33,165 nt of DNA from Acidimicrobiaceae bacterium. GTDB lineage: Bacteria > Actinomycetota > Acidimicrobiia > Acidimicrobiales > Acidimicrobiaceae. The translations under genes and the position numbers were made by a program. The notes under the pieces are model-generated. The model was given only the letters and a program-made list of their open reading frames with translations. It did not search any database and was not told the DNA's origin. The stretch spans positions 1-33,165 of the forward strand of contig JABEUM010000023.1 of the NCBI GenBank assembly GCA_013044475.1, in the 5' to 3' direction. Below are positions 12,207 through 16,268 of this stretch, one piece after another (the stretch's first letter is position 1; every line of letters starts with the position of its first letter).

Positions 12207-13805
12207 CTAGTCGTAACTCGCTTCTAGATACCATAAGCCTTCGTGCGTGAGCAAAATATGCGCAGTTCCGTCGCCCAAGAGAACGAGCAGGCGCGCAAAG
12301 CGTTGTTCTTGGTCGTCATCCCACCATCTTTGATGGACTAACCATGGGCCGAGAAAGTCCTCTGTTACCCGCTTTCCCCAAGGGAATTCCACCACAGAAG
12401 GAGACAGAACCATGCCACCCCTACGATTCACTCTTACGACTTCACCGGTCAATGAAGTCACCTTCACGATGGGACGGTCTCTAAAAACCCGAGCTGGCGG
12501 AGGATTTGGAATAGAACCAGGCCACGGGGGATTACCGGCCCGTTGATCCACGGGTCCGCCACGAAAACCCGATCCACCCCGGTTATTTTTTGACCGAGAG
12601 GAAGATCCCTGCAACAACTCCTGCCAGCAGGAGAATCCGACGGTATCGATCGATGACCTTGCGCCTTCAACGTAAGGGACACAAACCGAGTTCACTCCAA
12701 GAATTGTCTCTGCCTTCATGGCGGCTCTAATGGTCATTCCAGGAGGAGCCTTGGCCGATCCAAAAAGGTCCATCTGGATACCGGCATCACCGACGACATC
12801 GAGAAACTCTACCTGCCAGCTATTTACTCCGTCCCAACCGGACGGCCCTTCAAAGTGCTCCTCCATCCCCTGCAGCTGCCAAATAATTCTGTCAGCGATT
12901 GACCTTTCGTCAAATCCAGAAAATAGGCTCCAACTCCTTCTCGAGTCCGATCTCGAAGCCGAGATTGAAATCTCTAGCGATGTCGCTATTAGTCCAGCAT
13001 TGCGGAGTTTCTCAACTTCATCGGCCAGTTTTGGTATCTGCGAGAAAACGACCTGGTCATATCCGACCAAGGGAGATTCGGCAGTAAAACTCACCTTAAC
13101 CCCCTTAGAGGGAGGAGTGCATCCTGGTGGATTTGCACGACTTCCACGTGCCATCTCAAGGAGTTCGATCCCTCGGACCCCAAACCTTGTCGAAATATCG
13201 GCAAGGTTCATATGGATAAAATCCCCTACAGTACCAATACCAAGTCGGATCAGCGTTTCGACAACAACATCACCACCGAGAACCGTTATGGGAAGAGACT
13301 CCAAGAATCTTTGGTTGGCATCTTGGGGGATAACCAGATTCTGAAGGCTGGCAGCCTTAGCGGCCACAAATCCATCGGCAATACCGATAAGGATGTCGTC
13401 ATCGTCTAATCTCCGTCCCTCGGATATATCGAGCTGAGACAGGGCCTCCCTTATCGAGCGAATAAGCGTAACCGGTTCTTTGAAGTACCTCATCACCGCC
13501 CTATAGGGAAGGTAGGCGGAGGTCGTATCTAGATAGCGGAAATAGGGTGAGACGCTATCCAGCGCGTCAGCAACTGTTGATGCAATCTTTGCCTCCTTTT
13601 TAACATCTCTTGGGTAAAACTCGAGATGATGAAGCTGGGACATTGCCTGAGACTGGCTCATCCCCAGAGCTACTCCCCCAGACAATGCCCCCTTAGAAAG
13701 CCCGACCACTTTACGCTCTGCCAAAATGGCACATACATCTTGCTCCCCCCACTCGTAGCACATGGCAAGTAGGTTGGATAGCTCTAGATAGACAAATCTT
13801 TCCAC
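12207..13805 (-). CDS. imuB: ImuB: catalytically inactive Y-family polymerase-like mutasome scaffold
   Basis: Y-family fold features with YLELSN at the N-terminal acidic-motif position; HhH region; clamp-binding-like motif QMDLFG; follows imuA'. Confidence 0.86.
   Translation of the reverse strand: MERFVYLELSNLLAMCYEWGEQDVCAILAERKVVGLSKGALSGGVALGMSQSQAMSQLHHLEFYPRDVKKEAKIASTVADALDSVSPYFRYLDTTSAYLPYRAVMRYFKEPVTLIRSIREALSQLDISEGRRLDDDDILIGIADGFVAAKAASLQNLVIPQDANQRFLESLPITVLGGDVVVETLIRLGIGTVGDFIHMNLADISTRFGVRGIELLEMARGSRANPPGCTPPSKGVKVSFTAESPLVGYDQVVFSQIPKLADEVEKLRNAGLIATSLEISISASRSDSRRSWSLFSGFDERSIADRIIWQLQGMEEHFEGPSGWDGVNSWQVEFLDVVGDAGIQMDLFGSAKAPPGMTIRAAMKAETILGVNSVCVPYVEGARSSIDTVGFSCWQELLQGSSSRSKNNRGGSGFRGGPVDQRAGNPPWPGSIPNPPPARVFRDRPIVKVTSLTGEVVRVNRRGGMVLSPSVVEFPWGKRVTEDFLGPWLVHQRWWDDDQEQRFARLLVLLGDGTAHILLTHEGLWYLEASYD
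12759..12776 (-). other. Predicted beta-clamp binding motif (QMDLF) within ImuB
   Basis: GIQMDLFG matches the QL(S/D)LF-type clamp-binding consensus known for ImuB/Y-family proteins. Confidence 0.6.
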
Positions 13806-13820
13806 AACAAAATCATGCCG

Positions 13821-14456
13821 CTATGATGCTCGGCGACCGGGATGGTGTTCCATGCGCTCCACGGCTTGCACTGCGATCTCTCCTTCTGCCAATATTCCAC
13901 TAGAGACGGAACCTGACAACGTCCACGGCGACCTGCTCACAAAGAGTCGCAGGTCTGCCTTGATCCTGTATGAGATCTCTTTTGGCGAAGAACTGTTTTC
14001 AATAACCACCAGGGTTGCACCCTTCTGCCTAGCCTTAGCGCTAAACCTAGGCGAATTCAAGGAAGCGATTCTTCCGGAAATCACTACTATTCCAAAGCCG
14101 TCTAAGAGAGCAAATGCCGCCCGAGCGAGTTCGCGCTCCGAAAACTTTAGCTTCGGATCGACTGTTATCACTTTCGAAAGATCTACGCCTAAATGGGCTG
14201 CTAGAGAAAAGTTATAGTCGTCCAGACCAACCACCGCCGAATATATTCCTTTACTAGATGGTTCTGCCAAAAGCAGCGACAAGAAGGTGTAGCTTCCAGT
14301 TGCAGGCAAAGCATGGACAACAACCGTCGAACCTCGGCTTATGGAAAGGTTTTTTAGGGCACCCTGAAGCCTTTCGCAAGTCGGCAGTGTCTTCGACCCG
14401 CTGGCATCCTCCACTCCTTTACAAACGGCAGCCGTTGGCCCAGAATAGGTTTTCAT
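13821..14456 (-). CDS. imuA': ImuA' (RecA-like mutasome component)
   Basis: RecA-like core with degenerate P-loop (ALPATGSYT), VVGLDDYNFSLAAHLGVDLSKVITVDP; directly upstream of imuB; ATGA overlap with iscB. Confidence 0.78.
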   Translation of the reverse strand: MKTYSGPTAAVCKGVEDASGSKTLPTCERLQGALKNLSISRGSTVVVHALPATGSYTFLSLLLAEPSSKGIYSAVVGLDDYNFSLAAHLGVDLSKVITVDPKLKFSERELARAAFALLDGFGIVVISGRIASLNSPRFSAKARQKGATLVVIENSSSPKEISYRIKADLRLFVSRSPWTLSGSVSSGILAEGEIAVQAVERMEHHPGRRAS

Positions 14457-16099: not shown

Positions 16100-16240
16100 C
16101 TATTCACCTCCCTGCTGGCGTCTTGGTCTGCTCAACCTGGGCTTGCGGGACCCTCCAGTAGGCCCCGACTTTAGCCGTGGGGTGGTTGACGAAAACCGCT
16201 CGATCTCAACGGATAAGCTCCCCCTGGTTAGTTAAATAGA
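16100..16240 (-). ncRNA. Candidate omega-RNA scaffold / left end of the IscB element
   Basis: Minus-strand GGTTTTCGTCAACCACCCCACGGCTAAAGTCGGGGCC hairpin immediately 5' of the IscB frame, the position of omegaRNA in IscB loci; exact ends unknown. Confidence 0.5.
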
Positions 16241-16254
16241 GATGTTAGTCTCTA
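16237..16254. repeat. Inverted repeat TAGAGA-N6-TCTCTA abutting the SOS box
   Basis: Perfect 6-bp arms read directly; possible IS left-end hairpin. Confidence 0.5.
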
Positions 16255-16268
16255 CGAACATATGTTCG
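16255..16268. promoter_or_regulatory. LexA/SOS box CGAACATATGTTCG (perfect palindrome) upstream of iscB-imuA'-imuB
   Basis: Exact CGAAC-N4-GTTCG match; minus-strand TAACAT follows 7 nt later as a possible -10. Confidence 0.88.

What the first reader, a model, noticed from the sequence alone, without database searches (positions are those of the whole stretch)
12207..16268. IscB sits inside an SOS mutasome operon: LexA box -> iscB -> imuA' -> imuB, with an ATGA overlap between iscB and imuA'
Seen: a perfect SOS box CGAACATATGTTCG (16255-16268) precedes iscB. The iscB stop TGA (14455-14453) overlaps the imuA' ATG (14456-14454), and imuB follows after ~15 bp. No other SOS box was noticed directly upstream of imuA'. 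Established: imuA'/imuB/dnaE2 are LexA-regulated in mycobacteria and many bacteria. Inference: an IscB element landed between the SOS promoter and imuA', so iscB is now SOS-inducible and imuA' translation may be coupled to iscB. The system could be a damage-inducible RNA-guided regulator, or the insertion may simply impair the mutasome.
Basis: partly seen in the sequence, partly recalled or inferred. Interest (0 to 1): 0.78.

Follow-up and report, generated by a model that had tools for sequence, protein, structure and literature searches.

The report
IscB transposon at an SOS start codon
A small IscB-type mobile element has landed exactly at the start codon of a DNA-damage-induced mutagenesis operon because elements of this kind occupy ATGA start codons in many bacteria, and this particular copy looks like a worn-out nuclease rather than a working RNA-guided switch.

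Summary
In detail: a perfect LexA box (16255-16268), then iscB, imuA' and imuB, with a 4-bp ATGA overlap. An ISC (IscB/HEARO) element of 1,734 bp (14457-16190) sits between the SOS promoter and imuA'. A distant congener (G001) has the LexA box about 50 bp before imuA' with nothing between; three nearer congeners carry the insertion as a wreck (G002) or a scar (G003, G004).

The ATGA overlap is not specific to this operon. ISC elements here are flanked by ATGA (the probable TAM); in 32 of 43 sites from several phyla that ATGA starts a host ORF, including smpB, galE, galU and mutS2. In the window's lineage iscB has no stop codon of its own: nine of nine copies use the TGA of the flanking ATGA.

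This copy has probably lost RNA-guided function: HNH His is Arg, RuvC-III Asp is Ile, the omegaRNA scores 41 bits against 80-106 in relatives, and the guide matches nothing else. Yet codon evolution shows purifying selection until recently (dN/dS 0.17).

Verdict: insertion between SOS promoter and imuA' is supported; a damage-inducible RNA-guided regulator is not.

The parts
16255..16268 (.). LexA/SOS box CGAACATATGTTCG, original promoter region of imuA'-imuB
   Evidence: same box upstream of imuA' in G001-G004
14457..16190 (-). ISC (IscB/HEARO) element, 1,734 bp, no transposase gene
   Evidence: ends set by paralogues C93 and C190 and by position 1 of the HEARO model
16191..16206 (-). presumed 16-nt guide segment AGATCGAGCGGTTTTC, taken from the imuA' leader
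   Evidence: flanks omegaRNA position 1; guide length is by analogy with known IscB; no other match with ATGA in the assembly
15935..16190 (-). HEARO-type omegaRNA, eroded
   Evidence: RF02033 41.1 bits, E 4e-7, below the 83-bit cut-off; relatives 80-106 bits
14453..16099 (-). iscB long ORF, 548 aa; conserved core begins near the GTG at 15832
   Evidence: PF14239 and HNH, NF040563
15197..15199 (-). HNH catalytic His codon changed to Arg (CGT)
   Evidence: alignment of IscB relatives and of solved IscB chains
14879..14881 (-). RuvC-III catalytic Asp codon changed to Ile (ATT)
14453..14456 (-). ATGA: flanking motif (probable TAM), iscB stop (TGA) and imuA' start (ATG) in one
13821..14456 (-). 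imuA' (mutasome accessory factor)
   Evidence: NF058630, E 4e-16
12207..13805 (-). imuB (divergent Y-family protein)
   Evidence: found in 58 of 60 relatives
4000..7233 (+). dnaE2, third mutasome gene, with its own LexA box at 3764-3777

Best explanation
A transposase-less ISC (IscB/HEARO) element inserted 5' of an ATGA that is the start codon of imuA', in an ancestor of this species and its nearer congeners. ATGA is the flanking motif of these elements, so they often end up between a gene's promoter and leader and its start codon. There the host promoter can transcribe the guide, omegaRNA and iscB, and the iscB reading frame runs through the element's right end to stop on the TGA of ATGA, so ribosomes finishing iscB can restart on the captured gene. 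Here the captured promoter is the LexA-controlled mutasome promoter, so iscB should be SOS-inducible by position. Shown: location, ends, motif, shared insertion, borrowed stop. Inferred: transcription, induction, coupling. This copy is most likely a recently inactivated relic: both nuclease centres have lost a catalytic residue and the omegaRNA is degraded. In a sister species it is wrecked, and in two others only a scar remains.
For: LexA box next to imuA' without an element in G001, shared but decayed insertion in G002, scar ending in the element's right end just before the imuA' start in G003 and G004. Two paralogues in the same assembly define both ends; all copies are followed by ATGA. 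Across loci in several phyla, 32 of 43 ATGA-flanked sites begin a host ORF of at least 80 codons; null 0.13-0.38, P about 1e-6 at 0.378. For GalE, GalU, SmpB, PpsR, FixJ, acetolactate synthase, a FabG-like SDR and acetoacetyl-CoA ligase the family profile aligns from residues 1-6, so ATGA is the true start. Nine of nine copies of the window lineage use the flank TGA as stop, with compensating indels in one. Decay.
Against: The window's iscB evolves as slowly as relatives with intact sites (dN/dS 0.171 against 0.156; a neutral stretch longer than about 0.07 substitutions per site is rejected). Neutral drift since the G002 split (about 0.12) would keep the frame open with P 0.005. So decay must be recent, or something still preserves the protein. 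The Shine-Dalgarno-like GGGGGAG lies 27 nt, not 6-11 nt, upstream of the insertion. No transcript, LexA-binding or translation data were available. A sigma-70 scan may miss an internal promoter in this phylum.
Confidence: 0.78

Rival explanations
1. Exaptation: a nuclease-dead IscB is kept as an RNA-guided DNA-binding regulator induced with the SOS mutasome, analogous to TldR proteins derived from TnpB.
For: Catalytic residues lost in both nuclease domains while the ORF stays open and dN/dS stays at 0.17.
Against: omegaRNA score half that of relatives; no guide match with ATGA elsewhere; iscB lost in all three nearer congeners; only one genome has the dead form at this site.
Confidence: 0.1
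2. Frame kept for translation only: the IscB protein does nothing, but its reading frame must stay open so that ribosomes reach imuA' and transcription is not cut short.
For: iscB has no stop of its own and ends on the imuA' start; no other promoter-like or LexA site before imuA'; imuA' and imuB under purifying selection.
Against: Pure frame-keeping predicts relaxed amino-acid constraint, but dN/dS is 0.17. In G002 the frame is broken and in G003/G004 it is gone, yet imuA'/imuB persist.
Confidence: 0.15
3. Active selfish element: the IscB is still a working, unusual nuclease that protects the insertion by cutting empty alleles.
For: Purifying selection for most of its history; bridge helix and RuvC-I/II residues intact.
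Against: His to Arg in HNH and Asp to Ile in RuvC-III, against about 30 relatives that keep both; eroded omegaRNA.
Confidence: 0.04
4. Assembly artefact joining unrelated contigs.
For: Metagenome-type assembly in 192 contigs.
Against: Remnants of the same arrangement in the separate genome G002, and matching scars in G003 and G004.
Confidence: 0.01

Closest known systems
IscB / ISC elements with omegaRNA (HEARO, RF02033; NCBIfam NF040563)
   Same: RRXRR/RuvC-HNH protein, omegaRNA directly upstream, guide taken from the left flank, ATGA-type motif on the right flank, no transposase in the unit
   Different: this copy lost the HNH His and the RuvC-III Asp, its omegaRNA is below the family cut-off, and iscB has no stop codon of its own
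imuA'-imuB-dnaE2 mutasome under LexA (mycobacteria and others)
   Same: three genes, LexA boxes before dnaE2 and before imuA'; RecA-dependent induction by mitomycin C is reported in M. tuberculosis (PMC8151990)
   Different: a mobile element separates the LexA box from imuA' by about 1.8 kb
TldR, nuclease-dead TnpB-derived RNA-guided regulators (PMC13418256, abstract)
   Same: a transposon nuclease homologue with catalytic residues lost and the frame kept
   Different: different nuclease family; no conserved guide-target relation and no intact guide RNA found here
IsrB (PMC9581776)
   Same: NTGA/TTGA target-adjacent motif, consistent with ATGA here
   Different: IsrB lacks the HNH domain; here the HNH domain is present but mutated

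Membership tests
IscB / ISC (HEARO) element | RRXRR N-terminal and HNH domains, full-length IscB model | tested here: met
   (356.6 bits, cut-off 175)
IscB / ISC (HEARO) element | HEARO/omegaRNA immediately upstream on the same strand | tested here: met
   RF02033 over its full length at 15935-16190, E 4e-7, but 41 bits, below the 83-bit gathering score
IscB / ISC (HEARO) element | multiple copies with the same ends and a right-flank motif | tested here: met
active RNA-guided nuclease IscB | catalytic RuvC Asp/Glu/Asp and HNH His | tested here: not met
   RuvC-I Asp and RuvC-II Glu kept, RuvC-III Asp is Ile, HNH His is Arg
active RNA-guided nuclease IscB | RNA-guided cleavage next to a TAM | not testable with these tools
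   needs protein and RNA in vitro
TldR-like RNA-guided regulator | guide matching a promoter elsewhere in the genome | tested here: not met
   only match (up to 3 mismatches, with ATGA) is the guide's own locus; the assembly is about 86% complete
LexA-regulated mutasome operon | LexA box upstream, LexA in the genome, box conserved in relatives | tested here: met
LexA-regulated mutasome operon | LexA binding and damage induction of the iscB-imuA'-imuB transcript | not testable with these tools
   needs EMSA/ChIP and RNA-seq

The most novel reading that the evidence does not exclude
A naturally nuclease-dead IscB has been kept by selection inside an SOS mutasome operon, as a damage-induced protein acting without cutting DNA.
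Probability: 0.1. Interest if true: 0.85.

Novelty: new variant of a known kind. Interest (0 to 1): 0.58.

Why it matters
It gives a simple rule for where IscB elements survive: at ATGA start codons, where the motif acts as target-adjacent motif, start codon of the captured gene and, in this lineage, stop codon of iscB. That would explain how transposase-less elements whose guide is encoded outside them get transcribed, and how they can sit in front of genes such as smpB or galU. The mutasome copy shows one consequence, a mobile nuclease placed under SOS control, and the same site in four species shows stages of its decay. I did not find the start-codon rule stated in the papers I could search; from memory, early HEARO work (Weinberg 2009, not held) noted ATGA/GTGA flanks, so part of it may be known.

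Tried and rejected
Rfam at gathering threshold found no RNA in the window; the permissive search on the short stretch did. A viral-contig scan gave only two distant relatives, with no start-codon pattern resolved. A Pfam scan did not recognise imuA' or imuB; NCBIfam did. I first took the ATGA overlap for a coupling trait of this operon; paralogues showed it to be the flanking motif. I considered the IS607-type fragment at 16392-16733 as the mobilising transposase of the iscB element and rejected it: its homologues lie elsewhere without iscB and share only 16519-16777. A phylum-wide family search found IscB in 11 of 397 genomes, several in lineages with other right ends, which could not be scored. 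Literature searches for IscB and start codons, and for nuclease-dead IscB, found no description of either.

Full report
Observation. The box is one of five exact CGAAC-N4-GTTCG sites in the 2.38-Mb assembly, and another of the five precedes dnaE2 in the same window. A LexA homologue is present. NCBIfam identifies IscB and DnaE2 well above cut-off; ImuA' is just below its cut-off (59 against 65 bits, E 4e-16) and ImuB is a divergent Y-family protein.

The element. Two IscB paralogues elsewhere in the assembly (contigs C93 and C190) share the window sequence from 16190 to about 14450 and nothing outside. The permissive Rfam search places position 1 of the HEARO omegaRNA at 16190. The element is therefore 14457-16190, 1,734 bp, with omegaRNA and iscB and no transposase. 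The guide would be the last bases before 16190, AGATCGAGCGGTTTTC, which belong to the imuA' leader.

Shared insertion. In G001, a more distant congener, the same LexA box lies about 50 bp before imuA' with no element. In G002 (imuB 89% identical) both ends of iscB are present and the middle is replaced, in part by a remnant that looks like a TnpB zinc finger. In G003 and G004 only a scar of roughly 100 nt remains, ending in a recognisable right end just before the imuA' start. The insertion is thus most simply older than the split of these species (imuA' dS about 0.23 to G002 and 0.83-0.85 to G003/G004). An independent insertion in G003/G004 at the same base is the less simple alternative.

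Why ATGA. Every intact right end in the genus is followed by ATGA. In the window's genus and its order, ATGA is the start of a host ORF in 6 of 9 sites: imuA', a cpaB-like gene in two species, a ctaG-like gene, a PPK2 gene and two others. In Marinobacter and Vreelandella 24 of 25 copies are flanked by ATGA and 20 of the 24 begin an ORF of at least 80 codons. Further cases are mutS2 in an Anaerolineae bacterium and three genes in Moorena. In total 32 of 43; this tally treats similar copies at different sites as independent. The null, the share of all ATGA that begin such an ORF, is 0.13-0.38 by genome; at 0.378 the probability is about 1e-6. Family profiles start at residues 1-6 for GalE, GalU, SmpB, PpsR, FixJ, acetolactate synthase, a FabG-like protein and acetoacetyl-CoA ligase, so these are true starts, not internal Met codons; PanE and Blh were not clear. 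Joined flanks show a Shine-Dalgarno-like sequence 6-11 nt before the junction in 8 of the 19 sites listed, but not in the window. Whether the pattern reflects target choice or survival of harmless insertions cannot be told from these data. NTGA is the reported motif of the related IsrB (PMC9581776).

Borrowed stop. In nine copies of the window's lineage, including decayed ones and two in another family (G277), the iscB frame runs through the right end without a stop and ends on the TGA of the flanking ATGA. One G277 copy has a +1 and a -1 change that cancel before the end. In the printed translation the G003 copy was read out of frame because its contig ends there; one search shows it in frame. 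Marinobacter copies instead stop 55 nt before ATGA, so the borrowed stop is a trait of this lineage, not of all ISC elements. Hence the four-base overlap with imuA' follows from the element's structure and target.

State of this copy. About thirty relatives keep the HNH His and the RuvC-III Asp; the window has Arg and Ile. Its omegaRNA scores 41 bits, against 80-106 for five related copies. The guide followed by ATGA has no other match with up to 3 mismatches. These point to loss of RNA-guided cutting. Against a long-dead relic, a codon model on six IscB sequences gives dN/dS 0.171 for the window branch and 0.156 for the rest, and rejects a final neutral stretch longer than about 0.07 substitutions per site. 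Neutral drift for the time since the G002 split would leave the frame open with P 0.005. The protein was therefore maintained at this fixed locus for most of the time since insertion, and either died recently or is kept for another reason. I favour recent death because the RNA is eroded and three congeners have lost the gene.

Mechanism. Most likely the LexA-controlled promoter transcribes leader, omegaRNA, iscB, imuA' and imuB together, and ribosomes that end iscB on ATGA restart on imuA'. No other LexA box or minus-strand sigma-70-like site was found before imuA'. These steps are inferred; nothing here measures expression. imuA' and imuB remain under purifying selection in species with and without the iscB body, so the mutasome is probably still used.

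What is known and what is new. IscB, omegaRNA, guide capture from the flank and the LexA-regulated mutasome are known. RecA-dependent induction of imuA', imuB and dnaE2 is reported in M. tuberculosis (PMC8151990). What I did not find described is the start-codon rule across phyla, the iscB without its own stop, and a catalytically dead IscB with a conserved frame; the library excludes most subscription papers, so this is weak evidence of novelty.

Noticed in passing
L114 (G035:C156, also L086) and L115 (G009:C121): Two IscBs in another genus of the same family have the RuvC-I Asp changed to Ala (G009 also RuvC-II Glu to Gly) with the HNH residues and open frame intact; they sit in different surroundings.
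   Followed up: partly
window 16519-16777: Remnant of an IS607-type element (serine recombinase start, NF033518 weak hit); similar left ends occur at about ten other places in the assembly, several at contig ends.
   Followed up: partly
L039:4415-4890 (G002): The decayed iscB in G002 contains a stretch resembling a TnpB C-terminal zinc finger, suggesting a second insertion into the first (read by eye).
   Followed up: no
window 15832-16117 and copies C93, C190, G035, G009: A Shine-Dalgarno-like GGAGGTGA inside the omegaRNA precedes an open frame running in phase into iscB, so the omegaRNA may also be read as a protein leader.
   Followed up: no
L044:2337-3950 and 2300-2731 (contig C190): The C190 iscB carries a 19-nt tandem duplication at RuvC-III that shifts its frame; the downstream cpaB-like gene still starts on the ATGA.
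   Followed up: partly
window 22871-25300 (-): Long ORF that by eye resembles a TrwC-type relaxase; not checked.
   Followed up: no
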